Assembly (NCBI GenBank): GCA_023452965.1
Contig: JAEXUU010000513.1
Location: 1-29,546 of the forward strand
Direction of reading: 5' to 3'
Length of the DNA: 29,546 nt
Source: Pseudomonadota bacterium
Lineage (GTDB): Bacteria > Pseudomonadota > Alphaproteobacteria > Rhizobiales > Beijerinckiaceae
Below the pieces are notes generated by a model. The model saw only the letters and a list, made by a program, of their open reading frames with translations. It was not told the origin of the DNA and made no database searches. The position numbers were made by a program, and so were the translations under genes. Each line of letters starts with the position of its first letter. Position 1 is the first letter of the stretch. Shown here one piece after another: positions 140 to 21,571 of the stretch.

Positions 140-1201
140 TCACGCCGCCAGGGATATGAAGCGCGCGACGTCCTGAGGCGCGATCTGGTCCCGCAAACCG
201 GTTACCAACGCGTCATGGCCGAGCAGCCGGAGATCCTCGTTGAAGTCCCCGAGCCACGGCGAGAGTGCAACCGTCTCGATGCCGGCTGCGCTTGCGCGCT
301 CGATCAGGGTCGCCATCGCGGCGTCCCCTGCCGGATCCCTGTCGCGGGCGACATAGAGCCGTCGCAGCGTCAGCGGGAACAGGATGGCAGACAGATGGGT
401 CGCCGAGAGCCCCGCGATCGCCGGCAGGGCTGGCAGGACGGACCGAACGGAGAGCACCGTCTCGATGCCTTCACCGGCCGCCATCACCTCGCTGCCGAGC
501 CCGAACCGGACCGCCGAGCCGAGCAGATCCCCCATTGCACGCCGGGGCGTTTCGAGCGGCGCACGGCCGAGGCGGAGCTCGGAAAAGCCGTCGGGATCGA
601 GCCAGGTCCGATGCACGCCGGTCAGCCTACCGGTGAGGTCGGTGACCGCAGCAATCATCGCCGGCCAAGTCTCGGTCGGCGAATATTCGTCAGGTCGATA
701 GTAGCAGCGCGGATGGAAGCGCAGCGCGCCGGTGTCATGCAGCGCCGTGATGGCACGAGCCCGCAAATAGCTCTCCGCCAGCGTCCGACCGATGGACCGC
801 GACATGGCGAAGAGCCGCCGCGCCGCTTCCGGAGACCCTGCCGACGCCGAACCCGAGCCCGCGTTCCACCCTCCGGGTTCCAGATCCGGATGGGGAAGGC
901 TGAGGAAGCTGCGGGCTTCCTCAGCCACGTCCCTGAATTCAACCAGGCCGCAGCTCTCGCGGATGACGTCGAGGAGGTCGCCATGTTCGCCCGTTGCGGA
1001 ATCAGTCCATTTCCCAGCGGCGCCTTTGCCGGCTTCCGGCCCGACCAGCCGCACGAACATCGAACGGCCAGGTGCATTGCGAACATCGCCGACGAGCCAA
1101 TAGCGGCCCTGGCGCTTGCCGTTGGAGAGATAGTGCCGGCACGCTGCCTCCGCCCGTCTGCCAAGACGGTGGGCGAGCTCGGCAGCATCGAGGCGAGCCA
1201 T
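140..1201 (-). CDS. Toprim-domain protein, primase-like (DUF7146 + Toprim_3 type)
   Basis: The protein has 353 residues. The N-terminal half resembles the primase-associated DUF7146 region, including the W-x-D...GEHGDLLDVIR element near residues 65-81. The C-terminal half is a Toprim fold: GEGIET at about 243-248 supplies the conserved glutamate, ARDRDPAG at about 285-292 gives the DxD pair, and GDFNEDL at about 318-324 resembles the closing motif of Toprim_3. Toprim domains bind two metal ions and act in primases, topoisomerases and nucleases, so a priming or DNA-processing role in element replication or transfer is likely but inferred. The start at 1201 was chosen because its ATG shares one base with the TGA of the helicase gene (TGATG), indicating translational coupling. 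A further 36 codons in frame upstream lie inside the helicase gene and look non-native. Confidence 0.88.
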   Translation of the reverse strand: MARLDAAELAHRLGRRAEAACRHYLSNGKRQGRYWLVGDVRNAPGRSMFVRLVGPEAGKGAAGKWTDSATGEHGDLLDVIRESCGLVEFRDVAEEARSFLSLPHPDLEPGGWNAGSGSASAGSPEAARRLFAMSRSIGRTLAESYLRARAITALHDTGALRFHPRCYYRPDEYSPTETWPAMIAAVTDLTGRLTGVHRTWLDPDGFSELRLGRAPLETPRRAMGDLLGSAVRFGLGSEVMAAGEGIETVLSVRSVLPALPAIAGLSATHLSAILFPLTLRRLYVARDRDPAGDAAMATLIERASAAGIETVALSPWLGDFNEDLRLLGHDALVTGLRDQIAPQDVARFISLAA

Positions 1202-4200
1202 CACGCCACCTCCTTCTCGCTGACGCGCTCGACCGGGAACCGTCCAATCAGCTTGGCGAGAATCGCGGCGCCCGTACCGTCGGTCGGCACGAACATGCGC
1301 AGCTTCCACGAGATGATCTCGTGGAAGAGGCCAAAGGCGGACAGGCGCTCGCGCATCGTATCGGTGAAGCCGGACAGTTCGATCCGATGGGCGCCCATGA
1401 CGCGCACGCGCCGGAGCTGAAGGCCCTCAGCGAGGTCGAGGATGGTCCGGCCCTCGATCAGCGCACTGAACGCATCATCCGCCGTCAGCGTCGTGGTCCC
1501 GGTTGCCATCGCGCCGGCGACCCAGGCCGGCGACACCCTCCGGCCGATGATGCGCTCGCCATCATCGGTCTGGAGCCGATAGACGCGAGTCGACTCATTC
1601 GGCAGGCGCTTCCAGATCGGCAACAGCAGGCCTGCAACAATATGGATCGTCGATTCCGAGAAGATCGGGATATCCGCGAGCTCGGCATTCCAGGCCGCGA
1701 CGAAAGCGGCGCGATCCACTCCATGCCAGTGGCTCTCAGTCATGGTCTTGAACGTCGCGTAGTGCTGTTCCATCGGACGCAGAAGGGTGACGCGACGTTC
1801 GATCTCGCCATCGTCGAGCATCATCGACGGCGCGGTGAGCTGGACGGCCGCGCGCCCGGAGCGCTCGTTGACGAGAAGCACAGCGCGCGGGTCGTCGAGC
1901 CAGGCCAGCGCGGTGTCGAGAGAGACCGGCCGGTTCTTCTGACGCTGCGCCACGGTCAACAGCTGCGTCGCCGCGCCCGTGCCGGGATGGGTGTAGATGG
2001 AGCGTCGGTCCTTGACGACGAAGCTCTCCGCCTGGAGCGTTTCAAGGCCGAGATCGTAGATGCCGGCCGCGATCGCCCCCTCGACCTTGGCGGTCAGCAG
2101 CTGCTCGAAGGCCGAGAATAGAATATCCTGCAGGTCGATGGTGAGCGCCAGCAGCCGGTTGAGGAAGGTCGTGATCGGCGGCAGTTCATCCTTGATGCCG
2201 TTGTCGTCCATCAGCTTCAGGCCGGTCGTGTCCTCGAAGCGCTGCAGCGAGCAGCCCTCGACCTTGCCGCGGACCAGCAGGATGTAAAGCTGGCGCAGGG
2301 CATCACGCGCATAGTGGGATTCCAGATTGTCCTCCGGCCGGAACAGGCCCTGGCCGCCAGTCTGTCGCTGACCACGGGTGATCGCGCCCAAGGTATCGAG
2401 GCGGCGGGCGATCGTGCTGAGGAAGCGCTTCTCGGCTTTCACATTGGTCGCGATCGGCCGGAAGAGCGGCGGCTGCGCCGGGTTTGTGCGGTTGGTCCGG
2501 CCGAGCCCCTGAATGGCGGCGTCCGCCTTCCATCCGGGTTCGAGCAGGTAATGGACGCGCAGGCGCTGGTTCTTCGCAGCGAGATCCGCATGGTAGCTGC
2601 GACCCGTGCCGCCGGCATCGGAGAAGATCAACACGCGCTTCTGATCGTCCATGAAGGCCTGCGTTTCGGCGAGGTTGGCCGAGCCGGCGCGGCTCTCGAC
2701 GACGAAGCGCTGGCCCCTGCCGTCCGCGCTGGGCCTGCAGACGATGCGGCGCGAGCGACCAGTCACCTCCGCGACCACGTCCGTTCCGAAGCGCTGCACG
2801 ACCTGGTCGAGAGCACCCGGAACCGGTGGCAGGCTCGCCAGCTTCTCGATCAGCGCATTGCGGCGCGCCACGGCGTCGCGGCTTTCGACGGGCTGGCCAT
2901 CGCGGAAGACGGCACGCGATGAGATATTGCCGTCGCCATCCGTGAAGGGCTCGTAGAGCTGCACCGGGAACGAATGAGCGAGGTAGTCGAGAACATATTC
3001 GCGCGGTGTGATGTCGACACGAATGTCGGCCCACTCCTCGGCCGGAATTTCGGCCAGGCGACGCTCCATCAGCGCCTCGCCGGTCGAGACGATCTGGATC
3101 ACGGCCGAATGACCCTCATCGAGATCGCGCTCGATCGAGCGAATCAGGGTCGGGGTCTTCATCGAGGTCAGGAGATGGCCGAAGAAGCGCTGCTTGGCGC
3201 TCTCGAAAGCCGAGCGTGCGGCGGACTTCGCTTGCCGGTTCAAGGTGCCGGTGATGTTGGCGGCTTCCATCGCAGCATCGAGATGATTGTGGATCACCGC
3301 AAAGGCACCGGCATAGGCATCATAGATCCGTCGCTGCTCATCGGTCAGCTCGTGCTCGACGAGTTCGTATTCGACGCCGTCATAGGAGAGGGAGCGGGCC
3401 GTATAGAGGCCGAGCGCGCGCAGATCGCGCGCCAGGACCTCCATCGCGGCAACGCCACCGGCCTCGATCGCCTCGACGAAGTCGGCGCGGGTCGCGAAGG
3501 GAAAATCCTCGCCGCCCCAGAGGCCGAGCCGCTGGGCATAGGCTAGATTATGGACCGTGGTCGCGCCGGTCGCCGAGACGTAGACGATGCGGGCGTTCGG
3601 CAAGGCGTGCTGAAGGCGCAGGCCGGCCCGTCCCTGCTGCGAGGCGGCCACATCGCCACGCTCGCCCTTGCCGCCGGCCGCGTTCTGCATGGCGTGGCTC
3701 TCGTCGAAGATGACGACGCCGTCAAAGTCGGAGCCCAGCCATTCGACGATCTGCTTCACGCGTGAGACCTTCTCCGCGCGGTCGTCAGAACGCAGCGTCG
3801 CGTAGGTCGTGAAGAGGATCCCCTCGGGCAGCGTGATCGTCCTGCCCTGGGGAAAGCGGGACAAGGGCGTAACCAGCAGACGCTCCATGCCGAGCGCCGA
3901 CCAGTCGCGCTGCGCATCTTCCAGAAGCTTGTCGGATTTCGAGATCCAGACTGCTTTGCGCCGACCGCGTAGCCAATTGTCGAGGATGATGCCGGCGGAC
4001 TGCCGGCCCTTGCCGGCGCCGGTCCCGTCGCCGAGCATAAAGCCGCGGCGGAAACGGACGCTGCCGGATGCATCCTCTGGGGCCGCCTTCACGATGTCGA
4101 AGGTGTCGTCGACCGTCCAGGAGCCGGCGAGGAATTCGCCATGCGCCTCACCGGCATAGATCACGGTTTCGAGCTGGGCGTCGGAAAGGAGCCCATCGTT

Positions 4201-5532
4201 GACGAGGCCCATCGGCAGCATCGGGCGATAGGACGGCTTTGGCGGGGCGACCGACGCCATGGCGGCCGACTGGACGAGCTTGGTCGGATGCGGCTGGGCA
4301 TCCGGAATCCGGATCGCCTGCAACCCGTATTCCTCATAGATGGCATCGGTCAGCCGCGCACCTTCCGGCGGCGTCCAGTCGACAGTATCGTAGCTGAGCT
4401 CGACGCCCGCGATTTCACCGATCGGCGGGCACGCCGGGACTGGGGTCGCGGCGCGCGCGAGATAGCCGCGCACGGTCCGCGGCGCCGCCGCAATCGGCGC
4501 AACCTTCACAGCATCGGCGATCGGCATCCGCGGCGGCACGTGCGCAGCGATCCAGCCGAGGAGCGTCGCAACATCAGGGGCGACGCCCGGCGAGGCGGGA
4601 AAGCGGGAGGGATCGTCCGCCGGCAGTTTGTCGATGACGATGAGGCGCGTCTCGATCGTCGTGCCGTGCCTGGCATAGACAGCACAGTCGATCGCGGCGG
4701 AGAAGACGACGCGGGCGCGCTCCTGAAGGCGAATGAAGGCACCACGCCAGGCCGGCGCCTCGGGGCCGAAATTGGCTCCGGTGATGGTGACGAGACGGCC
4801 GCCATCGGCCAGCCGCGCCAAGGCGCTGGCAACATGACGATAGGCGGCGTCGGCGACGCGGCTTTCGACGTGGGCGAGGACCGAGAAGGGTGGATTCATC
4901 AGCACGACGGAGGGGACGATGCCTGGATCGAGATGATCATCGATCTGCGCCGCGTCGAAGCGGGTGACGGGCACGGCTGGGAAGAGAAGCGAGAGGAGAC
5001 CGGCGCGCAATTCCGCGAGCTCGTTCAGAACGAGCGACCCGCCGGCGATCTCGGCGAGAATGGCGAGCAGCCCGGTGCCGGCGGAGGGTTCGAGGACACG
5101 ATCGCTTGGCGTGACGGCGGCAGCCGTCACAGTGGCGATGCCGAGCGCGATCGGCGTCGAGAATTGTTGGAAGGCCTGGCTCTCTTCGGAGCGGCGGGTG
5201 TGGCTGGGGAGAAGGCCGGCGATCTTGCCGAGAAGCGGCAGGGCCGCGGCCGGCGAGCCGGCTTTGCGGAGAAGCGACTTGCCGTATTTACGTAAGAAGA
5301 GGACGGTCGCGGCCTCGCAGGCGTCATAGCCGGTCTTCCAGTCCCAGGCTCCGGAGGCGTCGGACGCACCGAAAGCGCTTTCCATGGCGGCGCGCAGGAC
5401 GTTTGCATCGATACGCTGGCCACGTTCGAGCTGCGGCAGCAGGAGAAGCGCGGCGGCATGGACCGCCGCCGCCGAGATGATGGCCGAATGCGACGCGGCT
5501 GCAGAGTCAGGGAGAGGGTACAAGGCGTTCAT
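1201..5532 (-). CDS. Strawberry-notch-family helicase fused to an N-terminal methyltransferase-like domain
   Basis: This giant protein has 1443 residues. Residues about 125-300 look like a Rossmann methyltransferase: VLEPSAGTGLL at 146-156 is the SAM-binding motif I and NPPF at 213-216 is the amino-methyltransferase motif IV. A superfamily 2 helicase follows: GDGTGAGKGRQ at 501-511 is Walker A, FDESH at 609-613 is the DExH box, and VSATGAT at 652-658 is motif III. The C-terminal helicase domain contains SDAGGTGRSYHADL and, near residue 1010, QGLGRTNRTNP, the strawberry-notch version of motif VI. Such proteins are common on alphaproteobacterial plasmids and integrative elements, where they are thought to act in DNA processing or protection; the actual role is unknown. 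The gene heads a minus-strand operon with the Toprim gene and is preceded by one of the structured leaders. Confidence 0.92.
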   Translation of the reverse strand: MNALYPLPDSAAASHSAIISAAAVHAAALLLLPQLERGQRIDANVLRAAMESAFGASDASGAWDWKTGYDACEAATVLFLRKYGKSLLRKAGSPAAALPLLGKIAGLLPSHTRRSEESQAFQQFSTPIALGIATVTAAAVTPSDRVLEPSAGTGLLAILAEIAGGSLVLNELAELRAGLLSLLFPAVPVTRFDAAQIDDHLDPGIVPSVVLMNPPFSVLAHVESRVADAAYRHVASALARLADGGRLVTITGANFGPEAPAWRGAFIRLQERARVVFSAAIDCAVYARHGTTIETRLIVIDKLPADDPSRFPASPGVAPDVATLLGWIAAHVPPRMPIADAVKVAPIAAAPRTVRGYLARAATPVPACPPIGEIAGVELSYDTVDWTPPEGARLTDAIYEEYGLQAIRIPDAQPHPTKLVQSAAMASVAPPKPSYRPMLPMGLVNDGLLSDAQLETVIYAGEAHGEFLAGSWTVDDTFDIVKAAPEDASGSVRFRRGFMLGDGTGAGKGRQSAGIILDNWLRGRRKAVWISKSDKLLEDAQRDWSALGMERLLVTPLSRFPQGRTITLPEGILFTTYATLRSDDRAEKVSRVKQIVEWLGSDFDGVVIFDESHAMQNAAGGKGERGDVAASQQGRAGLRLQHALPNARIVYVSATGATTVHNLAYAQRLGLWGGEDFPFATRADFVEAIEAGGVAAMEVLARDLRALGLYTARSLSYDGVEYELVEHELTDEQRRIYDAYAGAFAVIHNHLDAAMEAANITGTLNRQAKSAARSAFESAKQRFFGHLLTSMKTPTLIRSIERDLDEGHSAVIQIVSTGEALMERRLAEIPAEEWADIRVDITPREYVLDYLAHSFPVQLYEPFTDGDGNISSRAVFRDGQPVESRDAVARRNALIEKLASLPPVPGALDQVVQRFGTDVVAEVTGRSRRIVCRPSADGRGQRFVVESRAGSANLAETQAFMDDQKRVLIFSDAGGTGRSYHADLAAKNQRLRVHYLLEPGWKADAAIQGLGRTNRTNPAQPPLFRPIATNVKAEKRFLSTIARRLDTLGAITRGQRQTGGQGLFRPEDNLESHYARDALRQLYILLVRGKVEGCSLQRFEDTTGLKLMDDNGIKDELPPITTFLNRLLALTIDLQDILFSAFEQLLTAKVEGAIAAGIYDLGLETLQAESFVVKDRRSIYTHPGTGAATQLLTVAQRQKNRPVSLDTALAWLDDPRAVLLVNERSGRAAVQLTAPSMMLDDGEIERRVTLLRPMEQHYATFKTMTESHWHGVDRAAFVAAWNAELADIPIFSESTIHIVAGLLLPIWKRLPNESTRVYRLQTDDGERIIGRRVSPAWVAGAMATGTTTLTADDAFSALIEGRTILDLAEGLQLRRVRVMGAHRIELSGFTDTMRERLSAFGLFHEIISWKLRMFVPTDGTGAAILAKLIGRFPVERVSEKEVA

Positions 5533-5542
5533 CGGCGTTTCC

Positions 5543-5606
5543 CCGGAGAGCAGGAAGGGTCAAACCCGGCGGCGCTCTCTCGGACCGGACGGGCTCAAAC
5601 CCGTCC
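5543..5606 (-). promoter_or_regulatory. Structured 5' leader of the helicase gene (leader 1 of 4)
   Basis: Read on the minus strand, a closed hairpin of GGACGGG and CCCGTCC with a six-base loop (5587-5606) is followed by CCGAGAGAGC pairing with GCTCTCCGG (5543-5583, one bulge). The string GACGGGTTTGAGC and the TCCGAGAGAG element recur in the leader of the ParB-like gene. It lies 10 bases before the helicase ATG. It may be a cis-acting RNA or a protein operator; the layout differs somewhat from the other three leaders. Confidence 0.5.
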
Positions 5607-5633
5607 CGGCCCCACTCTGCCTCTCAGGCCACA

Positions 5634-5690
5634 TTGACTTGGACCACTCAATGGACCATTTCTCAGGAGAGGATTTCGAAGGAGGGTCCA
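5634..5690 (+). promoter_or_regulatory. Candidate operator/promoter of the toxin-antitoxin pair
   Basis: TTGACT at 5634-5639 could be a -35 element, although no good -10 follows. Overlapping its downstream side are two direct copies of TGGACCA (5640-5646 and 5652-5658), 12 bases apart, and an inverted TGGACC half-site at 5685-5690 next to the GGAGG ribosome-binding site. Antitoxins of this class repress their own promoters by binding such repeats, so an autoregulatory operator is a reasonable inference. Confidence 0.4.
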
Positions 5691-5694
5691 CGCG

Positions 5695-5952
5695 ATGCGC
5701 GTGTCTGTCAGCGATGCGAAGGGACAGCTCACCGAGTTGGTGAAGCGAGCGGAGGCCGGTGACGAGGTCATCCTGACCCGTCGCGGGCACGAGATCGTGC
5801 GCCTCGTCGCGGTGGCGGCGGCGCCCGGGTTGAAGGGCCGGCGCGCGCTGATGGAGAAAGTCAGGGCTGCCGCGGCTGCCAAGGCACTGCCGGGTGCCGA
5901 TGCTGCGCATAGCCAGGACTTTCTCTACGGCGATGACGGCATGCCCGCGTGA
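5695..5952 (+). CDS. Phd/YefM-type antitoxin
   Basis: The protein has 85 residues. The N-terminal part (MRVSVSDAKGQLTELVKRAE, then GDEVILTRRGHEIVRLV) is the typical Phd/YefM DNA-binding fold: a short strand, helix, and strand ending in a positively charged turn. The C-terminal third is alanine-rich and helical and ends near DFLYGDDGMPA, which would wrap around the toxin. A strong GAAGGAGGG ribosome-binding site lies eight bases before the ATG. The stop overlaps the toxin start as GTGA, so the two are translationally coupled. It neutralises the PIN toxin and probably represses its own operon. It is on the opposite strand to every other gene of the surrounding module, suggesting an independently acquired cassette. 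Confidence 0.9.
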   Translation: MRVSVSDAKGQLTELVKRAEAGDEVILTRRGHEIVRLVAVAAAPGLKGRRALMEKVRAAAAAKALPGADAAHSQDFLYGDDGMPA

Positions 5953-6332
5953 TCGCGGTCGATACCTCAACCCTCATGGCGATCGTGCTGGGCGAACCGC
6001 AGGCCGAAGCCTGCATGACCGCGATCGAGGAAGCGGAGCAGTTGCTGATCTCGGCCGGGACCGTCGCCGAGGCGCTGATCGTCGCGGGACGGCGCAATGT
6101 CGGCGATGAGGTCGGCGCGCTGATCTCGGGCCTCGGCTTCGAGATCGTCACGGTGACGGCGGCATCCGCCCGCCGGATTGCGGACGCCTATGGCCGCTGG
6201 GGCAAAGGGATCCACCCGGCCTCTCTGAACTATGGCGACTGCTTTGCCTATGAGGTCGCCATCGAACACGATTGTCCGCTGCTCTATATCGGCGACGATT
6301 TCAGGCAGACGGACGTGCGCTCGGCCCTCTAA
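5949..6332 (+). CDS. vapC: VapC-like PIN-domain toxin ribonuclease
   Basis: The protein has 127 residues and starts with GTG within the antitoxin stop (GTGA). PIN-domain acidic residues are visible: D5 in the opening AVDTSTL, E41 in TVAEALIV, D97 in NYGDCFAYE, and D116/D117 in YIGDDF. These form the metal-dependent active site of VapC ribonucleases, which block translation by cutting tRNA or rRNA; the specific RNA target cannot be read from the sequence. The length is normal for the family and all key acidic positions are kept, so it should be active. It serves as a stability (addiction) module when linked to mobile DNA. Confidence 0.93.
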   Translation: MIAVDTSTLMAIVLGEPQAEACMTAIEEAEQLLISAGTVAEALIVAGRRNVGDEVGALISGLGFEIVTVTAASARRIADAYGRWGKGIHPASLNYGDCFAYEVAIEHDCPLLYIGDDFRQTDVRSAL

Positions 6333-6341
6333 GTCAAGCCT

Positions 6342-6986
6342 TTAGCCGAACCGCCGGCCGGAGCTGGTAAAGGTATAGCCGTTGGCGCTGATGATTTCGT
6401 CGACGGCTTCATCAGCCGAGAGATGATCGTATTCACGCGCGAGCTGCCGGTAGAGCCAGTGCGCGAGGTCGCGCAGGGCCTCAGTCACATCCTGATCGGC
6501 GGTCACTGTCATGTCCTGATAGGTCGGACTGTCCCGTCCCACCGAAACCGCCATGCTGTACGCGTGGCAGTAGCGGCCGCATCGGGTGGTTTCAGCGCGA
6601 AGCTGATAGAAGTTCCTGCGCTGAATTTCGGTGAGGGTGTCGGCGATCCGATGGAGAGCTTCATCCCGCGGCGCGTATTCCCTGATGCGCCGCGGCGCGC
6701 CTTTGGCGTGGGCATAGTATGCCTCGAAGCAGGCGCCATCGCCCTGGCTCCAGAACCCCGTGAAATGGATCCGCGGTTCATTGCGTGTGCCGCCGCCACA
6801 AAGACGAATGGCTCGGGTCTTGAAGCGGATGCCGAGGATCTCGGCCACGTTCTCGAAATCCGCGAAGACGGCGCTGTACCAGTCGTCGTCGAAAGCGCTC
6901 TCGCGATACCAGGCGCGCGCTTTCTCCCTCCCCGCATCGCACAGCTCATCGAGCTGGTAGACGGTGGTTTCAATGATCTCAGGCAT
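6342..6986 (-). CDS. Conserved protein of the group often labelled 'antitoxin of toxin-antitoxin stability system'
   Basis: The protein has 214 residues starting MPEIIETTVYQLDEL. It is acidic and aromatic-rich, with conserved-looking stretches GFWSQGDGACFEAYYAHAKGAPRRIREYAPRD in the middle and LAREYDHLSADEAVDEIISANGYTF near the end. I recognise this layout from plasmid and phage proteins that databases often call an antitoxin of a stability system, but I know of no biochemical proof for that label. The start at 6986 is chosen from the protein family; an in-frame extension upstream runs through the neighbouring gene and looks non-native. It overlaps the upstream 151-aa gene by eight bases, so the two form one transcription unit. 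Its 3' end faces the end of the vapC gene, nine bases away. Confidence 0.75.
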   Translation of the reverse strand: MPEIIETTVYQLDELCDAGREKARAWYRESAFDDDWYSAVFADFENVAEILGIRFKTRAIRLCGGGTRNEPRIHFTGFWSQGDGACFEAYYAHAKGAPRRIREYAPRDEALHRIADTLTEIQRRNFYQLRAETTRCGRYCHAYSMAVSVGRDSPTYQDMTVTADQDVTEALRDLAHWLYRQLAREYDHLSADEAVDEIISANGYTFTSSGRRFG

Positions 6987-7434
6987 CGGAGCGCCCTCCG
7001 CCAGAGCGCTCGTGGAGACCGAGAGGCAAGCCGAGCATTTTAGGGTCCTTGGCCCTGGCCAGGATGGCTTCGCCTCGCGCCACCGCCCAGGCGGCCCGCG
7101 AGACCCATTCGCGCGACGGCGTAGCACCGGCGCGGATATCGACCATCATCATCTTGAGGAGGCCGAGTAGCGTTTCGAAATGCCGGGCCTTGCGCTGTAT
7201 CGTCTCGCCGAAATGGCTCGGCACGGCAAGAGACGGCGCCGAATAGTCAGCATTTGCGCCGGGCCAGATTCCAGTGACGAAGCTCTCGCCGGCGGACTCA
7301 TAGTCCGGCTTGCTGGCGTCCCAGTCACCATCGTCGATGGCGAGGCGGCAAGCTGCAGCGATTGACCGGGCGCGATAGTCGCTATGGCGAAAAACGGGCA
7401 GGTGATAGCTGGTCTCGATCGTGAAGATGGGCAT
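6979..7434 (-). CDS. Conserved hypothetical protein of mobile elements
   Basis: The protein has 151 residues starting MPIFTIETSYHLPVFRH. It includes ACRLAIDDGDWDASKPDYESAGESFVTGIW, which resembles small conserved proteins found beside the preceding family on alphaproteobacterial plasmids; no function is known. A GGAG ribosome-binding site lies upstream (TCAGGAGTGC). No membrane segment or signal peptide is seen. Gene overlap with the 214-aa protein suggests joint function, and the pair could be an ancillary plasmid module. Confidence 0.7.
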   Translation of the reverse strand: MPIFTIETSYHLPVFRHSDYRARSIAAACRLAIDDGDWDASKPDYESAGESFVTGIWPGANADYSAPSLAVPSHFGETIQRKARHFETLLGLLKMMMVDIRAGATPSREWVSRAAWAVARGEAILARAKDPKMLGLPLGLHERSGGGRSDA

Positions 7435-7458
7435 CGAAGCACTCCTGAAACGAGATTA

Positions 7459-7475
7459 CCCGGCATGGGGCCGGG
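7459..7475 (-). terminator. GC-rich hairpin between two minus-strand genes
   Basis: CCCGGC and GCCGGG form a six-base stem with a five-base loop. On the minus strand it is followed by TAATCTCGTTT, so there is only a poor T tract. It lies between the stop of the 187-aa gene and the start of the 151-aa gene, and could be a weak terminator or attenuator. Confidence 0.35.
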
Positions 7476-7514
7476 CAGTTCGGTGGGATGCTGTGAGGGG
7501 GTTGCGGCCAGCAT

Positions 7515-8078
7515 TCAGACGGCGCGAAGCAGCGCTACGCGCGCCCGCTGCCGCCAATCGGGATGGACGAGCCGGCCTTCGAGAGCGCTAGCTCGGAAGC
7601 GAAGCGAGCACGCTTCCGGATGATGCTGCGCTGCCGTCGCAAGCGAGGCCTCCCGGCGCAGGTCGCAGGCCTGCGCGATCACGACCCTGGCTTCGCCGTC
7701 AGAGGTGACCGGCACGCACCATTTGACGTCACGACCGCCAGCTTCGCTGGCGAGGACCTGGCAATGGTCGTCATCGATGATGATGAAGAGCCGCGGCGTA
7801 AAGGCGACAGCGCTGTCATCCTGGATGTCGATCCGATCCCGACAGGCCAGAGCTTCGACCGCCGCGATCGCGCCGACGATGGAATCGGCGGTTGCCAGGG
7901 CGACGTTGCGAGGGGCGGAGTAGGTGCCGGATGCGGGATCGCCATCCCCGTAATGTGCCTCGCCCAAGCAGGTGATCCGCAGCGGCGAACTCGGTGCGGC
8001 GGTGAGGGCAACGACTGCGCGGCTCGGAACCGTCGGGGTGTTCGGGACAACGACCGGAAAGGAAGGACGTGCATTCAT
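7515..8078 (-). CDS. Hypothetical protein, 187 aa
   Basis: I do not recognise a family. The protein begins MNARPSFPVVVPNTPTVPSR, has a proline/valine-rich N-terminus, then a region with alternating strands (ITCLGEAHYGDGD, RLFIIIDDDHCQVLASEAGGRD, VKWCVPVTSDGEARVVIAQACDLR) and an arginine-rich end. No signal peptide or membrane segment is convincing. The start at 8078 follows the leader structure and a GGAG site, as in the DUF932 gene; an earlier ATG lies inside the leader. Because it shares its leader type with the helicase, ParB-like and DUF932 genes, it is probably part of the same regulated module. Confidence 0.6.
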   Translation of the reverse strand: MNARPSFPVVVPNTPTVPSRAVVALTAAPSSPLRITCLGEAHYGDGDPASGTYSAPRNVALATADSIVGAIAAVEALACRDRIDIQDDSAVAFTPRLFIIIDDDHCQVLASEAGGRDVKWCVPVTSDGEARVVIAQACDLRREASLATAAQHHPEACSLRFRASALEGRLVHPDWRQRARVALLRAV

Positions 8079-8091
8079 CACGGATTCTCCA

Positions 8092-8132
8092 TGACGGGCT
8101 GCAGGAGAGGCTCTCCTCGCCATGACCCGTCA
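8092..8132 (-). promoter_or_regulatory. Structured 5' leader of the 187-aa gene (leader 2 of 4)
   Basis: On the minus strand TGACGGG (8126-8132) pairs with CCCGTCA (8092-8098), enclosing a perfect inner hairpin AGGAGAG-G-CTCTCCT (8103-8117). The outer stem is followed directly by TGGAG, the likely ribosome-binding site, and the ATG at 8078. This matches the layout of leaders 3 and 4. Confidence 0.6.
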
Positions 8133-8192
8133 CGGCCGATCCGGCCGATCTCTCCCTCTCTGCTCCGGGCGAGTGGCCGAGGCCCGCATGCT

Positions 8193-8220
8193 AAAAGCGC
8201 CCCGCCGGGAGCGGGACGCT
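8193..8220 (-). terminator. Intrinsic terminator after the antirestriction gene
   Basis: On the minus strand AGCGTCCCGC pairs with GCGGGGCGCT (one T-G pair) around a short loop, followed by TTTT. It begins nine bases after the stop codon of the antirestriction gene, the expected place for a rho-independent terminator. Confidence 0.75.
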
Positions 8221-8228
8221 TTCGTGGA

Positions 8229-8636
8229 TCAGTCGATGGCCTGATAGATGTCCGACGCTTCGGGATGCCCATCGACATAGGCGTGAAGACGCTCGTAGCC
8301 GTCGCCCAGGAAGCGCGAGCGGAACCGAAACGACAGGTGCGAGAAGGTGAACAGCGTCGCGATGATCCCCGCTGCCTCGGCGGAAACCTCGCCCTCGAAG
8401 CTGGTGATCCCGGCTTCGATCCGGAACCGAGGCTTCGAGGTCGGCGCGAGGAAGAGCGGCTGGCCGCGATCCTCGTAGAAATCCCAGTGGCCACCGCCAT
8501 AGTCGCGGGGGCTGAGGCGATCCATCATCGCGTAGACGGTGTTCTCGGCGACGATCAGCATCGGCATGCCGAACAGCCCGGGGAGGAAGGCTGGACGACC
8601 TTCGTCGGAGACCAGCGTTGCAGGATGCCGGGTCAT
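8229..8636 (-). CDS. ArdB/KlcA-family antirestriction protein
   Basis: The protein has 135 residues, close to the family length. Diagnostic stretches are MDRLSPRDYGGGHWDFYE near residues 38-55, FLAPTSKPRFRI, and the helix SAEAAGIIATLFTFSHLSF. ArdB/KlcA proteins are cytoplasmic inhibitors of type I restriction carried by conjugative plasmids; they protect incoming DNA during transfer. The start overlaps the stop of the 158-aa gene by four bases, so it is coupled to it. A strong terminator follows its stop. Its presence supports the view that this region is transferable. Confidence 0.85.
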   Translation of the reverse strand: MTRHPATLVSDEGRPAFLPGLFGMPMLIVAENTVYAMMDRLSPRDYGGGHWDFYEDRGQPLFLAPTSKPRFRIEAGITSFEGEVSAEAAGIIATLFTFSHLSFRFRSRFLGDGYERLHAYVDGHPEASDIYQAID

Positions 8637-9109
8637 GCCGCTGTCCTACCTTCGACCACGTCGGCGCCGACGGTGTCTTCGCACACTGGCTCGAGACGGG
8701 CATTGCGATAGCCGGATTTCGCGAGCCAGAGTTCGGCGGCGTTCTGGTCCTCGGCCAGATGCAGCAACTCGCCGCTCTCACTGAGGGTCTGGATGATCCG
8801 GACCTGCCCGACACGCGGGCGTTCGACGACACGGAAGGTCAGATCGCTATCGACACCGTAGGCGCGGGTCACGGTCATGACGATGATGCCGTCGCGACCG
8901 AAGCTGCCCTCGTTCAAGGTGAAGCAGGGCGGCGCGGTGTAGGTCGGCCGCTCGCGCTCCGGCACTTTTCGCACGAGGCGGCCGAGGCCGTTGCGCCGTT
9001 CCCAGGCCGCGAGCTTCTTGTTGAAGCGGGCCGGCGGCTTGGGACTCCCGTCGCTGTAGCTGATCAGCGAGCCGAGCGGAGCGATGTCGAATATGAGGGA
9101 TGCGGACAT
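8633..9109 (-). CDS. Conserved hypothetical protein, 158 aa
   Basis: The protein starts MSASLIFDIAPLGSLISYSDG and contains KPPARFNKKLAAWERRNGLGRLVRK, a stretch I associate with small conserved proteins of alphaproteobacterial plasmids; no function is known. The C-terminal half looks like a beta-rich fold (GIIVMTVTRAYGVDSDLTFRVVERP). The start at 9109 is supported by GGAGACAGACCT just upstream and by the terminator hairpin immediately before it, which makes the longer in-frame extension implausible. It is co-transcribed with the antirestriction gene through a four-base overlap. Confidence 0.68.
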   Translation of the reverse strand: MSASLIFDIAPLGSLISYSDGSPKPPARFNKKLAAWERRNGLGRLVRKVPERERPTYTAPPCFTLNEGSFGRDGIIVMTVTRAYGVDSDLTFRVVERPRVGQVRIIQTLSESGELLHLAEDQNAAELWLAKSGYRNARLEPVCEDTVGADVVEGRTAA

Positions 9110-9127
9110 AGGTCTGTCTCCAAAACG

Positions 9128-9154
9128 AAAATGCCCCGGTCGATGACCGGGGCA
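9128..9154 (-). terminator. Intrinsic terminator after the ParB-like gene
   Basis: TGCCCCGGTC and GACCGGGGCA form a perfect ten-base stem with a three-base loop (9132-9154), followed on the minus strand by TTTT, CG and TTTT. It lies about 50 bases after the ParB-like stop and just before the next gene's ribosome-binding site, so it separates the two transcription units. Confidence 0.82.
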
Positions 9155-9206
9155 GAAAAAGGGGATCAGGGAGTTCGCGGGGCGGCCGGAACCGCCCCGC
9201 CGGTGA

Positions 9207-11372
9207 TTACTCGGCCGCGACGAGGTGATGGCCCTCAACCTCTTCCGCCGCATCGCCGTCGTCCCCGGTCAGGAATTCCGGCAACGCCTCGACCTCGCCA
9301 TCGTTCGGCTCCGCAGCGGCTTCGCCTTCGAGATCCGCGGTGCGCAGCGGCTCGGGCAACCAGCCGGTATCGGCGAGCAGCCGTTCGGCCTGCGCGGCCA
9401 TGTCGCCTTTCTTCAGGTGCTCGATCAGCGAGACCGCCCGCTCGCCGGCGCCTTCACGCACGGCGGCCAGGATATGCGCCTTGGTGACGATCCCGAAATA
9501 ATTGGCGACGGTCGGGCGCCAGCCGGCGTCGACGACCATGTCGAGGCCGGTCGCATGAGCGAGGCGATCGGCCCCGGCGAGACGGCGCGCCAGACTATGC
9601 TGGCTCGGTCCGGCAGCGCTGTGATCGTTCGGCCGCTCATAGAGCGCGTTGACGCCATAGCTGACGCAATGGGCGAGCAGCGCCATCCGGCTGGCGTCGT
9701 CGAGGCCGGCGATCCAATCCCAGAGAACATCTTCATCCGAAGGGATGTCGGTCCTCCAGGCCTCGTAACGCTCATCGATCGCCTTCGCGGAGACGGATTC
9801 GGCCAGATCCGACCCCTGCGAAGCGAGATTGCGGTGGCGGATCGAGATTTCGAGACAGCCGGTCGGCGCGGCGTAGGAGTAGCGCTCCATCACCATCCGG
9901 TGCAGCAGCGCCGTCATCGCCACATGCGGATTTTCGGCAAGCGCCTGCTGCAGGGCCAGCGTGCGGTGGGCCGTGAGCTGTCCGACCAGACGCTCCGGCA
10001 GGGGCTTGATGACGCCGTCATCCTCTTCCTCCTCCTCAACTGGCTGGCCACCGATCGAGATCGCGGTGCACTGCACCCCATCAGTGCCGCCCGCGTACTC
10101 AGGATCGTCACTCGCCGCGCCGGATTCGTGACCGTCCCCATCCACGCCGAGCGGCGCCTCGTCGTCCGGTCGGACATAGCCGCGGTCGATGACAAGCTCA
10201 CCGTCGCGGTTGATGGTGAGGAAGACGCCGGCGCGCGCGACCTCATCTGGCTCGTAGATCGCCGGGCGGTTCTCGAAGGCCGCGAGCGCGGCTTCGATCT
10301 CGCTGAAGCGCTGATCGACCTCATCGGGCAGCTCGTCAGCATCGGCGTTTGCAGCTTCCAGATCATCGTACTCCTTGCGCAGGGCTTCGCGCGCTGCGCG
10401 CTCCTCCTCGGTGAGTTCCTGAGAGACGCTGCCGATCTTGCGCAGGCCGTTGGCATAGCCATAGGGCAGCTCGACCGCGGCTTCGATCCACTTCCAGCCC
10501 TGGGTCGCGAGCTCGTCGGCGAGCATGCGGAGCTTCTCGGTGACAAGGCGATCCAGCAACCCGACGTCCTCGAGCCAGCCGCTATCGTCGTCCGAAAAGA
10601 GGTCGCGCAGAACCGGACCGCCGGCGGCCTCATAGGCCTCCATCCCAACGAGGAGCGCACGCTTGTCGGACGAAGGCACCGTCTTCTCGGTCAGCATGCG
10701 GCGGATTTGCCAGGGCTCCTTCTGCCAGGAGTCGGCAATCCGCTCCCAGACCTGTTCCTGGCGCGCGTGATCGGGGTTGACGGTGAAGGCTTCCAGCATC
10801 GCCAGCGTCATTTCATCACGCGCATAGAGCTCGTGCAGCGCTGGCGACACGGTGGCGAGGCGAAGGCGCTGGGTGACATAGCGCGGCGTCGTGCGATAGG
10901 CATCGGCGATCTCCTCCCTGGTCATCCCGTCATCGACCATGCGCTTGAACGCCTTGAACTGGTCGAGCGGATGGAGTGCGAGGCGCACCGTATTCTCGGC
11001 CAGCGAGTCGTCGACCGCCGAGGTCTTGGCGTTCGCCTTCTTGACGAGACAGGGGACGAGTCCGTCGACCGGGAAGCGTCCGGCTTCGACAAGGCGCGAG
11101 ATCGCCCGGAAGCGGCGGCCGCCGGCCGGAGTCTCGAACTCGCCGGTCTCGTTGCCGTCGACGTCCCGGATGGCGCGAACATTCAGGCCCATGACGAGGT
11201 CCTCGCGTCGGTCGATGTCGTGCGTGAGTTCGTCGAGGTCGTCTTCGACCCCGATCTCTCGGACATTGCTGTCGGACAACCGGATCCGGTTGAACGGGAT
11301 GTCGCGCGACCGGGAGAACTCGATCATCGCGACGACGGGGGTCTGGGCCTTCTTCCTGGAAACCTTGGTCAT
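9207..11372 (-). CDS. Large ParB-like nuclease/partition-family protein
   Basis: The protein has 721 residues, more than twice the length of a chromosomal ParB. The ParB N-terminal domain is clear: IRLSDSNVREIG near 30-41, PAGGRRFRAISRLVEAG at about 82-98, and SLAENTVRLALHPLDQ at about 123-138. A KorB/ParB-like helix-turn-helix follows (MTREEIADAYRTTPRYVTQRLRLA, about 150-173). The long C-terminal part has an acidic coiled region (about 320-370), an EEEEEDD stretch and a helical end of unknown function. This long version is typical of plasmids and integrative elements of Rhizobiales and sphingomonads. It could serve in partition, in transcriptional control of the element, or in both. It has its own structured leader upstream and terminator downstream. 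Confidence 0.9.
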   Translation of the reverse strand: MTKVSRKKAQTPVVAMIEFSRSRDIPFNRIRLSDSNVREIGVEDDLDELTHDIDRREDLVMGLNVRAIRDVDGNETGEFETPAGGRRFRAISRLVEAGRFPVDGLVPCLVKKANAKTSAVDDSLAENTVRLALHPLDQFKAFKRMVDDGMTREEIADAYRTTPRYVTQRLRLATVSPALHELYARDEMTLAMLEAFTVNPDHARQEQVWERIADSWQKEPWQIRRMLTEKTVPSSDKRALLVGMEAYEAAGGPVLRDLFSDDDSGWLEDVGLLDRLVTEKLRMLADELATQGWKWIEAAVELPYGYANGLRKIGSVSQELTEEERAAREALRKEYDDLEAANADADELPDEVDQRFSEIEAALAAFENRPAIYEPDEVARAGVFLTINRDGELVIDRGYVRPDDEAPLGVDGDGHESGAASDDPEYAGGTDGVQCTAISIGGQPVEEEEEDDGVIKPLPERLVGQLTAHRTLALQQALAENPHVAMTALLHRMVMERYSYAAPTGCLEISIRHRNLASQGSDLAESVSAKAIDERYEAWRTDIPSDEDVLWDWIAGLDDASRMALLAHCVSYGVNALYERPNDHSAAGPSQHSLARRLAGADRLAHATGLDMVVDAGWRPTVANYFGIVTKAHILAAVREGAGERAVSLIEHLKKGDMAAQAERLLADTGWLPEPLRTADLEGEAAAEPNDGEVEALPEFLTGDDGDAAEEVEGHHLVAAE

Positions 11373-11386
11373 GATGCTGACTCCGC

Positions 11387-11428
11387 GACGGATCCCCGAG
11401 AGCCACTCTCTCGGAGCTGAAATCCGTC
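11387..11428 (-). promoter_or_regulatory. Structured 5' leader of the ParB-like gene (leader 3 of 4)
   Basis: On the minus strand GACGGAT (11422-11428) pairs with ATCCGTC (11387-11393), enclosing the hairpin CCGAGAG-AGTGG-CTCTCGG (11396-11414). CGGAG follows the outer stem as the ribosome-binding site and the ATG is at 11372. The outer stem bases differ from leaders 2 and 4 (A and T instead of G and C), yet pairing is kept, which is what covariation would look like. Confidence 0.65.
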
Positions 11429-11438
11429 ACGAAGCGAA

Positions 11439-11468
11439 GCGCCGCCCTCGTCCTCTGGAGGGCAGCGC
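11439..11468 (-). repeat. Imperfect GC-rich hairpin upstream of leader 3
   Basis: GCGCTGCCCTC pairs with GAGGGCGGCGC on the minus strand with one mismatch and an eight-base loop. It lies between the DUF932 stop and the ParB-like leader and has no T tract, so it is not a classic terminator. It may form part of an extended leader. Confidence 0.4.
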
Positions 11469-11546
11469 CACGTTCAACCGGGCCGGGCAGGCTCCGTCGG
11501 GCCATGCCGGAGATCGATTTTCTGACTGGGGCCCCTCGGGCGCCGA

Positions 11547-12740
11547 TCAGGCCGCCCGATCGAGCAGCTTCTTGGCCTTCGCTTCCAGGTCGAGGCGTGC
11601 GTCCTGATGGGGCTTGTCACGGGCAACGGCGGTGATGCCCTGGACGAAGTCGAAGATCGACTCCGGCGGGCGCCCCTCCTCGGTCAGGACGGTATCGATG
11701 ATCTTCGCCGTCTCGCCTTTCGAGAAGCCGCGCCGACGCAGGAAATCGGTGCGATCCTCGTCATTGCGCGCGACGAGACGCTCGCGCGAGGCCTTGATGC
11801 CGTTGATGAACGGTATCGGCGAGGAGTTGGCGAAGTTCAGCAGAGCTGGCGCGGCCTCGTGCGCGAAGCGGGAGGCTGCGTATTTCGAGTGGCGGATCGT
11901 GATCTCCTCGAAATCCTCGACGCCCCATAAATTGCGATTCTGGCAGACGGCGCGAAGATAGAAGCTGGCGATCCCGAGGGTTCTCGCGCCGACCTCGGAA
12001 TTCCAGCAGTAGAAGCCGCGGAAATAGAGATCCGGGGAGCCATCGGGAAGCCGGCCGGCCTCGATGGGATTCAGGTCGTCGACCAGGAAGATGAAGACGT
12101 CCCGGTCGGAGGCGTAGAGCGTCGTCGTGTCCTTGGTGAGGTCGACGCCCGGATTGTAGATGCCTGTCGACCAGTCGAGCACGCCCGGTACCTTCCAGCG
12201 GGTGTCGCCCGTGCCGTTGCCGGCAATACGCTGGACGGCTTCGACCAGTTCATGGTCGAAGATCCGGCCGTAATCGGGGCCGGTCACGGCGCGCAGTTCG
12301 ACACGACCGTCAGCGGCTTCGAAGGTCTTGACCTGCTCGGCGCGATGGTTGGTCAGCCCATATTTCAGGTTGACGCCGGCAAGCGGGGCCGGGAGCTGTC
12401 GCAGATAAGCGGCGGGCGCGCCGACCAGGCTGGCCAGCTGGCCGAAGCTCCAGTGAGTCGGCGCAACGGGAGCCTCCGCGCCGGGCAAGATCAAACTCAG
12501 CCGCTCAGCATCGTTTCGGCTCGCTTCCACTTGGATGCGGGCGCTCTCAACGGTCCGGCTGCGACTGCGCTCGGAGCGGGCGCCGACCTTGCGCGCGAGA
12601 TCTGTGAGCGACAGGAACCGCTCGTCATCGGGTCGGGAAAACCATTCGGACGAGACGCGGCCGACGCGTTCGCCGCGCGACACATCCACCTTATATCCGC
12701 CGCGAGGCTGGAGATGGGCATCGAGGATCTGCGTGGTCAT
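11547..12740 (-). CDS. DUF932-domain protein
   Basis: The protein has 397 residues and matches the DUF932 (phage/plasmid-like) family: LSLTDLARKVGARSERSR near the start, THWSFGQLASLVGAPAAYLRQLPAPLAGVNLKYGL in the first third, then RIFDHELVEAVQRI, SDRDVFIFLVDD and RGFYCWNSEVGARTLGIASFYLRAVCQN. DUF932 proteins occur on plasmids, phages and integrative elements; their role is not established. The start at 12740 is preferred because GGAGGT lies seven bases before it; an ATG five codons earlier overlaps that site. Leader 4 precedes it. It ends 174 bases before the ParB-like gene. Confidence 0.88.
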   Translation of the reverse strand: MTTQILDAHLQPRGGYKVDVSRGERVGRVSSEWFSRPDDERFLSLTDLARKVGARSERSRSRTVESARIQVEASRNDAERLSLILPGAEAPVAPTHWSFGQLASLVGAPAAYLRQLPAPLAGVNLKYGLTNHRAEQVKTFEAADGRVELRAVTGPDYGRIFDHELVEAVQRIAGNGTGDTRWKVPGVLDWSTGIYNPGVDLTKDTTTLYASDRDVFIFLVDDLNPIEAGRLPDGSPDLYFRGFYCWNSEVGARTLGIASFYLRAVCQNRNLWGVEDFEEITIRHSKYAASRFAHEAAPALLNFANSSPIPFINGIKASRERLVARNDEDRTDFLRRRGFSKGETAKIIDTVLTEEGRPPESIFDFVQGITAVARDKPHQDARLDLEAKAKKLLDRAA

Positions 12741-12753
12741 GACTGAGACCTCC

Positions 12754-12795
12754 ATGACGGGCGCCGGAGACCTCCTCTCAGCTCAATCCCGTCAT
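12754..12795 (-). promoter_or_regulatory. Structured 5' leader of the DUF932 gene (leader 4 of 4)
   Basis: On the minus strand ATGACGGG (12788-12795) pairs with CCCGTCAT (12754-12761). Inside is GAGA-GGAGG-TCTC (12767-12779). TGGAGGT follows the outer stem and is the ribosome-binding site for the ATG at 12740. The inner GAGGAGGTCTC copies the ribosome-binding-site string GGAGGTCTC, so the leader could switch between pairings. Confidence 0.6.
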
Positions 12796-12799
12796 CGGT

Positions 12800-13195
12800 G
12801 CCTCGCCCTCCTCTCACTCTCGGATGTGCGACGCACTGATATACGACGAGTAGGGCGCAGCTGCGCAGCGCGCATCACCCCTTGGATCCACCCGACCTGC
12901 CGCTTCTCTGAGTTCCCGATGATCGCCTGCACGGTGCGCGATTCGTCTTTCGACCGGCGAGATCCGCACCATTTCCGCGGCAACCTGCTACAGTGGAGGG
13001 AACTCTCCCGCAGAACCATCGGTCGCCGCACGCCCTGCAATCCACTGCGCGGCACAATAGCCGCCGAACTCAACGCCTTATTTCCGAACGTGTTGCGTAC
13101 GATGCAGCCTGGGTCTCGATCTGCCCGGTTCCGGCGCTGACGGCAAGCCGATCCTTGGGCACGCCTGAGGCCGACGCCATCCGATCTGGTCCTCG
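12800..13195. other. Junction region without a recognisable gene
   Basis: I see no convincing gene on either strand here. A minus-strand open frame spanning 12792-13844 runs through it but is arginine- and serine-rich with no domain-like pattern and crosses the IS5 remnant, so it looks like chance. Near 12838-12843 the minus strand reads TATATC, which could be a -10 element for the DUF932 gene, but no matching -35 is clear. The stretch is probably decayed sequence at the border of two modules. Confidence 0.4.
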
Positions 13196-14580: not shown

Positions 14581-14609
14581 GGGCCGAAAACAGCCCCTTC
14601 AGCTGCGAG

Positions 14610-14645
14610 ATTTTCGCATAACTTTGTGGAATGAATAGCGAATAT
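14610..14645. promoter_or_regulatory. Candidate LysR operator in front of the transport operon
   Basis: The stretch between the LysR gene and the binding-protein gene is AT-rich compared with its surroundings. ATTTTCGC (14610-14617) and GCGAATAT (14638-14645) form a dyad matching at seven of eight positions with a 20-base centre. LysR regulators bind dyads upstream of target promoters, so this is a reasonable operator candidate. No convincing sigma-70 promoter could be assigned. Confidence 0.35.
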
Positions 14646-14740
14646 CTTACGATTTGACCGCTTGCCGTGGCGGCGGCACCTTGTCGAGCAGCGGAGGACG
14701 CTCGAACGCCTCCGCCAACTGGGAACGGGATATCGTTGGA

Positions 14741-15829: not shown

Positions 15830-15905
15830 CGGTTTCATCCCTCCGATCGCCGCCGGACAGCGCTGAGCCGGCTGCCGACACCCCCAACTATCTGGTATAG
15901 CAAGC

Positions 15906-19513: not shown

Positions 19514-19552
19514 CACAAAGGCGGTCCTCCGATTGCTCAACCGGTCCCTGTC

Positions 19553-21181: not shown

Positions 21182-21257
21182 ATATCACTAACTGGTCTGC
21201 CCCCTGAAAAGTGGCCCTCCCTGAAGTAGGCTTTTGAGCCTTTGGAGGATGCCTGTG

Positions 21258-21536: not shown

Positions 21537-21571
21537 GCCCCTCCCGCCGCCGACGCTGCATCGACCACGCC

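What the first reader, a model, noticed from the sequence alone, without database searches (positions are those of the whole stretch)
5543..12795. Four related structured leaders precede separate genes of one mobile-element module
The helicase, 187-aa, ParB-like and DUF932 genes each have a leader built from a GACGG-type arm, a GAGAG-rich inner hairpin and, in three of them, a closing CCGTC arm directly followed by a GGAG ribosome-binding site (8092-8132, 11387-11428, 12754-12795; variant at 5543-5606). In the ParB-like leader the outer stem changes to GACGGAT/ATCCGTC, keeping pairing. This suggests a shared cis-regulatory RNA, or an operator for a common regulator such as the ParB-like protein, coordinating the module at translation.
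Basis: seen in the sequence. Interest (0 to 1): 0.78.

Follow-up and report, generated by a model that had tools for sequence, protein, structure and literature searches.

The report
Shared RNA leaders of plasmid genes
Several anti-restriction and upkeep genes of mobile DNA elements in alphaproteobacteria each begin with the same kind of folded RNA leader, which usually hides the ribosome-binding site, so one unknown signal could switch the whole gene set at the level of protein making.

Summary
The window has three copies of one leader (R1 bits 72, 57, 49; next site 19) and a longer variant before the helicase. Both recur on alphaproteobacterial mobile elements. A class I covariance model finds 170 sites in 78 sources, all in the orientation of the ParB-like gene, before at least seven unrelated families, mainly ParB-like, DUF932, ArdC and the 187-aa family. 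A class II model (helicase, ArdB-like, DUF6878) finds 60 sites, three of them class I. The covariation score exceeds all 500 shuffles for both. G-U pairs outnumber A-C mismatches 94 to 24 in the inner helix, favouring RNA over a DNA operator. No Rfam family matched.

Most likely these are cis-acting RNA leaders that control translation of one module through an unidentified factor. Early switching-on after transfer is inference. Against: in the window only the ParB leader is predicted firmly closed, and many plasmid records with a leader are typed non-mobilizable.

The parts
11379..11470 (-). class I leader of the ParB-like gene (model R1 match, 72.4 bits)
   Evidence: the equivalent site is found in 77 of 78 sources
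11447..11456 (-). upstream purine element AGAGNNAGAG (here AGAGGACGAG, one departure)
11387..11428 (-). hairpin GACGGAT..ATCCGTC with inner CCGAGAG/CTCTCGG helix
11381..11384 (-). Shine-Dalgarno GGAG, predicted paired with CUUCGU before the hairpin
8085..8173 (-). class I leader of the 187-aa gene (57.2 bits); GG of GGAG predicted mostly unpaired in the leader alone (0.85)
8150..8159 (-). AGAGNNAGAG element (AGAGGGAGAG)
12748..12835 (-). class I leader of the DUF932 gene (48.8 bits; model match 12748-12834)
12811..12820 (-). AGAGNNAGAG element (AGAGTGAGAG)
5533..5635 (-). class II leader of the strawberry-notch helicase gene (model R2, 77.2 bits; in its training set)
5615..5624 (-). AGAGNNAGAG element (AGAGGCAGAG)
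9207..11372 (-). ParB-like protein gene, 721 aa (PF17762 HTH_ParB)
11547..12740 (-). DUF932-like gene; start taken as ATG 12740, as in relatives (the ORF opens at ATG 12755, which overlaps the Shine-Dalgarno region)
   Evidence: Pfam DUF932 only below its cut-off
7515..8078 (-). 187-aa protein gene, no Pfam or NCBIfam family
1201..5532 (-). strawberry-notch type helicase gene, 1443 aa (PF13872, PF13871)
8229..8636 (-). ArdB-type antirestriction gene (PF03230), no leader of its own in the window; some relatives have a class II leader
140..1200 (-). Toprim gene of the module, no leader found

Best explanation
The leaders are the structured 5' untranslated regions of separate genes in one anti-restriction and DNA-handling module of alphaproteobacterial mobile elements. 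Shown by comparison: an upstream purine element AGAGNNAGAG, then a conserved hairpin with a GACGGG-type base and an AG-rich apical part; in class I the lower stem continues into the Shine-Dalgarno sequence. Inferred: folding hides the ribosome site and keeps translation low; a trans-acting factor that reads the purine elements, most likely an RNA-binding protein, opens or locks the fold and so sets the genes of the module together. Further inferred: the purpose is a burst of anti-restriction and DNA-handling proteins after transfer into a new cell, before the factor builds up.
For: 170 class I sites (E<=0.1) in 78 sources, all in the orientation of the ParB-like gene; 7-9 nt between GGAG and start in 161 of 170. 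Clusters downstream: ParB-like 77, DUF932 35, ArdC 24 plus 1 frame of 17 aa, 187-aa family 20, 128-129-aa family 5, RadC 5, an unassigned 306-323-aa family 2, helicase 1 (weak, 21 bits). Covariation on the MAFFT alignment A1: score 0.318 against 0.222 shuffled, 0 of 500; slid controls at most 0.112. Class II A4: 0.374 against 0.234, 0 of 500 (A4 is fitted to the model). GG of GGAG unpaired: median 0.0015 in 118 leader genes, 0.14 in 262 other genes with GGAG in the same 81 sequences; opening cost median 7.4 against 4.4 kcal/mol. One shuffle of the 8 nt before the hairpin raises mean GG accessibility from 0.058 to 0.248. Six annotated plasmid stretches not used for training (three chosen by a ParB-like match, three by a leader match): 12 of 13 class I sites above 30 bits and 6 of 8 class II sites above 30 bits end just before an annotated CDS. 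Leader in 27 and ParB-like in 35 of 385 genomes, both in 23; the 4 leader-only genomes carry truncated or fused ParB or DUF932 pieces.
Against: No expression data of any kind. The Shine-Dalgarno letters are fixed, so pairing with them shows little two-sided covariation; columns 42/98 and 43/97 fail to pair in 19 and 31 of 90. The measure 'pairs with a change on both sides' is reached by 14 of 500 shuffles and 4 of 500, and shuffles do not control for relatedness. In the window the 187-aa leader is predicted open (0.85 unpaired) and the DUF932 leader intermediate (0.36). 60% of the other GGAG genes also have P below 0.2. AGAGNNAGAG has no proven role and no binder was found. Class II does not obviously cover its Shine-Dalgarno. 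No sigma-70-like promoter was found in 5400-13000, so transcription of the leaders is unproven. For the transfer-timing step: plasmid records matching a leader are typed non-mobilizable in 50 of 96 and 91 of 224.
Confidence: 0.65

Rival explanations
1. DNA operator: a dimeric protein such as the ParB-like protein binds the inverted repeat in duplex DNA and represses transcription.
For: Inverted repeats near gene starts; a ParB-like HTH protein is encoded in the module.
Against: G-U pairs 94 against A-C mismatches 24 in the unselected inner helix; all 170 model sites in one orientation; narrow distance to the start codon. The position at the ribosome site is unusual for an operator (general knowledge).
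Confidence: 0.08
2. Single-strand DNA promoter of the Frpo kind, active on the incoming strand.
For: Gene content resembles leading-region modules; Frpo-type promoters precede such genes (PMC11541004, passages); no duplex promoter found in 5400-13000.
Against: No promoter-like hexamers noticed in the leaders (by eye; one search scans duplex promoters only); the hairpin abuts the Shine-Dalgarno, so a transcript starting below it would have almost no leader; the wobble pairs kept are those of the coding strand, whereas a hairpin on the template strand should keep the opposite kind.
Confidence: 0.05
3. Transcription attenuation or processive antitermination site: linear AGAG element plus hairpin read by RNA polymerase-bound factors.
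For: Linear element plus hairpin at nearly fixed spacing; terminator-like hairpins lie before two other module genes.
Against: Many module genes in a row each have their own leader, where a processive system would need one; no U run after the hairpin, which is followed by GGAG; overlap and pairing with the Shine-Dalgarno.
Confidence: 0.1
4. Constitutive feature: a hairpin that stabilises or insulates each mRNA, without a switch.
For: No binder, ligand or induction known; very stable folds (class I mean about -32 kcal/mol).
Against: Strong conservation of purine elements that are not paired in the class I fold; stronger predicted hiding of the Shine-Dalgarno than in other genes, the opposite of what an expression aid would need.
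Confidence: 0.12

Closest known systems
Establishment gene regulatory sequences EGeRS1 and EGeRS2 of pLS20-family plasmids (PMC8708921; abstract, part 1 of 3 of the Results and section 4.1 read)
   Same: One conserved element repeated before several establishment operons including ardC; EGeRS1 is rich in inverted repeats and sits immediately before the ribosome site.
   Different: EGeRS1 is 420-750 bp on pLS20 (Bacillus) and its mechanism is given as unknown; EGeRS2 carries a promoter controlled by a repressor. The present leaders are about 90-105 nt, alphaproteobacterial, one per gene, and class I pairs with the Shine-Dalgarno.
Frpo/ssi single-strand DNA promoters (PMC11541004, passages)
   Same: Hairpin elements before anti-defence genes of conjugative elements.
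   Different: Frpo carries promoter elements in the folded DNA; none was noticed in these leaders, and the wobble pairs kept are those of the coding strand.
STAXI RNA motif (PMC2864571, passages)
   Same: Candidate structured motif near genes for SSB, integrases, topoisomerases and antirestriction proteins.
   Different: STAXI is repeated pseudoknots with frequent UUCG loops; no STAXI match in the window, in six loci at gathering score, or in L005, L111, L112 at E<=5.
radC RNA, Rfam RF01754 (named in a table of PMC2864571; its gene associations are recalled)
   Same: Proteobacterial motif, recalled to precede DNA-handling genes of mobile elements.
   Different: 149-position model of other architecture; only a match below its cut-off, on the + strand at 7720-7895, outside the leaders.

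Membership tests
Any Rfam release 15 family | match at or above the gathering score | tested here: not met
   0 matches in the window and in six loci
Any Rfam release 15 family | weak match overlapping a leader | tested here: not met
   none of 7 matches at E<=10 in 5400-13000 or 6 at E<=5 in L005, L111, L112 overlaps a leader
Cis-regulatory structured RNA (kind) | compensatory base changes across relatives | tested here: met
   class I; class II, fitted alignment; relatedness not controlled
Cis-regulatory structured RNA (kind) | consistent position before start codons of several gene families | tested here: met
Cis-regulatory structured RNA (kind) | transcribed and changes expression | not testable with these tools
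   no expression data
EGeRS1/2 | same sequence element | not tested
   different length and structure as described in PMC8708921; sequences not compared
Frpo ssDNA promoter | -35 and -10 like elements in the folded strand | tested here: inconclusive
   none noticed by eye; no sigma-70-like site in 5400-13000 (a duplex scan only); relatives not scanned
RNA thermometer | stem that melts near growth temperature | tested here: inconclusive
   class I mean about -32 kcal/mol at 37 C argues against; no melting calculation was run
DNA operator | departures from pairing equally frequent as G-U and as A-C (indirect criterion of mine) | tested here: not met
   inner helix G-U 94, A-C 24

The most novel reading that the evidence does not exclude
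Alphaproteobacterial conjugative elements run a dedicated post-transcriptional regulon: one factor reads two related leader architectures and switches the translation of ten or so unrelated anti-restriction and DNA-processing genes, giving zygotic induction at the RNA level rather than at promoters.
Probability: 0.3. Interest if true: 0.85.

Novelty: new variant of a known kind. Interest (0 to 1): 0.7.

Why it matters
How conjugative elements time their anti-restriction genes is known from few cases, in what I read at promoters (single-strand promoters, repressors) or by unknown means. A widespread RNA leader before ArdC, ArdB-like, ParB-like, DUF932, RadC and helicase genes would give a handle on establishment genes in a large bacterial class, mark unknown genes as part of the same programme, and point to a missing regulator that can be fished with the RNA itself.

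Tried and rejected
Rfam identity: searched at gathering and at permissive thresholds, nothing on the leaders. DNA operator and single-strand promoter: argued against by wobble asymmetry and position. The outer six pairs of A1 were selected for pairing with G-U allowed and A-C not, so they are left out of that count; in the Shine-Dalgarno extension the counts are 159 G-U and 11 A-C, inflated because GGAG is fixed.

Rows dropped: a loose arm-and-GGAG pattern gave 217 places, 172 on + and 45 on - (the - places include the window's own leaders and look-alikes inside genes). A stricter pattern gave 168, 132 distinct, 96 after the 90% redundancy filter; I dropped 7 of these as look-alikes (six on - in L003, L004, L005, L010, L025, L030 and one in L053), leaving 89, and added back the window's ParB leader, which the filter had removed. 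The orientation claim rests on the model search, not on that selection. Three of 80 loci (L012, L013, L015) were left out because their leaders looked identical to those of L010.

Antisense RNA source: exact AGAGNNAGAG occurs 110 times on the ParB-coding strand (90 followed by leader-like sequence) and 8 times on the other in 40 of the 80 loci, against about 6 per strand, extrapolated from one mono-shuffle of 20 of them, so no complementary source stands out within these loci. A competing hairpin in the 18-nt linker is weakly supported: mean -4.03 against -3.55 (sd 0.16, 40 swaps) kcal/mol for swapped halves; relatedness is not controlled.

Leader without ParB: four of 27 genomes, but these carry truncated or fused module genes, described only. 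Of plasmid records with a leader-like match, the 40 of 96 and 60 of 224 shown are all of genera that I know as alphaproteobacterial.

Papers: eight searches (the last found none). No title or abstract start in their listings describes these leaders; only four of the papers were opened, in part. The library holds open-licence papers only.
Full report
What is there. All genes named in the finding are on the - strand. Three leaders, before the 187-aa gene, the ParB-like gene and the DUF932 gene, have the arms reported, with inner AG-rich hairpin and GGAG two bases after the closing arm. A covariance model built from 90 leaders (the three of the window among them) ranks these three above everything else in the window: 72.4, 57.2 and 48.8 bits; the helicase site follows with 19.4 and the best other site with 14.2.

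Is it more than chance. A search for relatives of the ParB-like protein kept the best 80 of 167 loci, from alphaproteobacterial and a few oddly labelled records. In the 54 of 80 loci that I printed, the region before that gene is visibly conserved. The model found 170 sites at E<=0.1 in 78 sources (window and 77 loci; three loci with identical-looking leaders left out), every one in the orientation of the ParB-like gene. Clustered by the following reading frame these are ParB-like 77, DUF932 35, ArdC 24 with one further frame of 17 aa, 187-aa family 20, 128-129-aa family 5, RadC 5, an unassigned family 2 and the helicase 1; 161 of 170 have 7 to 9 bases between GGAG and the start. ArdC and RadC were named by Pfam on one member each; the window's DUF932 protein falls below the Pfam cut-off. 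In six annotated plasmid stretches not used for training, 12 of 13 class I sites above 30 bits end a few bases before an annotated CDS: ParB five times, DUF932 and RadC twice each, ArdC, a zincin-like protein and a hypothetical protein once each; the thirteenth, in L131, has no annotated gene after it. Three of these stretches were fetched through a ParB-like match and three through a leader match, so one leader in each of the latter is there by choice.

Structure. The 90 training leaders were picked by pairing of the six outer positions, a GGAG after it and a start-like triplet, so that stem is circular; the inner helix was not used for picking. On the MAFFT alignment, RNAalifold by itself extended the outer stem through the two bases after it into GG of GGAG. 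With the structure named, 93.0% of cells pair, 12 pairs show changes on both sides, and the covariation score is 0.318 against 0.222 in shuffles (0 of 500) and at most 0.112 when slid; the number of pairs with two-sided changes alone is reached by 14 of 500 shuffles. The larger model-fitted set of 128 distinct rows gives 0.320 against 0.223 (0 of 500; two-sided pairs reached by 4 of 500). In the inner helix G-U pairs number 94 and A-C mismatches 24: the coding strand is the one whose pairing is kept, as expected for RNA and not for a duplex operator or a hairpin on the template strand.

A second feature lies upstream: AGAGNNAGAG, mostly 18 bases before GACGG; under a relaxed purine pattern 2 of 90 leaders lack it. 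The exact pattern occurs 110 times on the ParB-coding strand and 8 times on the other in 40 loci. It is not explained by the class I fold.

The ribosome site. In 118 leader genes the GG of GGAG is unpaired with median probability 0.0015, in 262 other genes with a GGAG in the same sequences 0.14; below 0.2 in 92% against 60%. Opening the site costs a median 7.4 against 4.4 kcal/mol. Only identical stretches were removed, so related loci count repeatedly. One shuffle of the eight bases before the hairpin raises the mean from 0.058 to 0.248. In the window itself the picture is mixed: ParB-like leader closed (0.001), DUF932 intermediate (0.36), 187-aa leader open in isolation (0.85), which I ascribe to a competing linker hairpin. 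With bases after the start codon included, the opening costs of these three are 6.8, 5.3 and 4.2 kcal/mol. A competing linker hairpin is a weak general trend.

The helicase variant. It is not a poor copy of the first type but a second architecture of about 105 nt: AGAGNNAGAG, then in most relatives a long hairpin with a GACGGG- or AAGGG-type base and GAGAGAGAG near the tip, then GCTCTCC before the Shine-Dalgarno. A model from 19 sequences (window included) finds 60 sites at E<=0.01, all in the orientation of the ParB-like gene; three are class I leaders at lower scores (25-26 bits), and the class I model hits helicase leaders weakly (18-24 bits), so the two types look related. The frames after 10 of the sites were read: helicase, ArdB-like, DUF6878 and a 138-aa protein. 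In the six annotated stretches 6 of 8 class II sites above 30 bits end before an annotated CDS (helicase three times, DUF6878 twice, a hypothetical protein once); two lie in stretches without annotation. Pairing is supported by 21 of 23 pairs with changes on both sides and a score of 0.374 against 0.234 shuffled, with 81.9% of cells paired, on an alignment fitted to the structure; swapping halves costs 2.2 kcal/mol on average. The window's own helicase leader has a rival two-hairpin fold as its minimum.

Distribution. The 12 genomes with ParB-like but no leader have only relatives at most 42% identical; the split is not clean, since one genome with leaders (G172) has a 38% relative. The four with leader alone carry truncated or fused ParB or DUF932 pieces. 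All 24 genomes chosen through ParB loci have 1 to 15 leaders. Named plasmids include pCHQ1 of Sphingobium indicum UT26S and pMLb of Mesorhizobium japonicum. Of 224 plasmid records matching one leader, 113 are typed conjugative, 20 mobilizable and 91 non-mobilizable; of 96 matching another, 35, 11 and 50.

How it most likely works. Shown by comparison: a conserved RNA-type fold tied to start codons of unrelated genes of one module. Inferred: translational control by hiding the ribosome site, and a common trans-acting factor reading the purine elements. Inferred further: timing of anti-restriction functions at entry into a new cell, by analogy with establishment regulons of pLS20-family plasmids (PMC8708921) and leading regions (PMC11541004). 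The factor is unknown; no result here favours the ParB-like protein.

Novelty. No Rfam family matches, and no title or abstract start listed by eight searches of an open-licence library describes these leaders. Repeated regulatory sequences before establishment genes are known; an RNA leader of this form and reach appears not to be described in what I could search.

Noticed in passing
window 5695-6332 (+): A Phd-type antitoxin and a PIN-domain (VapC-like) gene sit between the helicase and the 214-aa gene on the opposite strand of the module.
   Followed up: partly
window 9132-9154 (-) and 7457-7477 (-): Terminator-like hairpins with a TTTTCG- or ATCTCG-type tail directly precede the ribosome sites of the 158-aa and 151-aa genes, and similar hairpins stand before most relatives printed: perhaps a third kind of leader in the same module.
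   Followed up: partly
window 5640-5658: Direct repeat TGGTCCA-TTGAG-TGGTCCA (- strand) between the helicase leader and the antitoxin gene; a TGGTCCA also precedes the helicase leader in L001.
   Followed up: no
window 13669-22405: Beyond the module lie LysR-type, ABC-transporter and CoA-ligase-like genes and an IS3-type transposase (21234-22405), likely cargo; from reading the translations only.
   Followed up: no
L120 592-9075: pCHQ1 carries a second SSB-Toprim-helicase-ParB-ArdC module in which neither model found a leader.
   Followed up: no
L132 24584-24687 and L133 36745-36848: Class II matches in stretches without annotated genes; possibly unannotated genes or remnants.
   Followed up: no
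L106 1127-1221: A class I match whose closing arm and GGAG look lost; possibly a decayed copy.
   Followed up: no
L047: Record titled Bacillus sp. 2B10 carries this alphaproteobacterial module; probable mislabelling or contamination.
   Followed up: no
L010-L013, L015, L016: The same module with identical-looking leaders appears in records titled Paracoccus, Gemmobacter, Maricaulis and Erythrobacter, suggesting recent transfer or assembly contamination.
   Followed up: no
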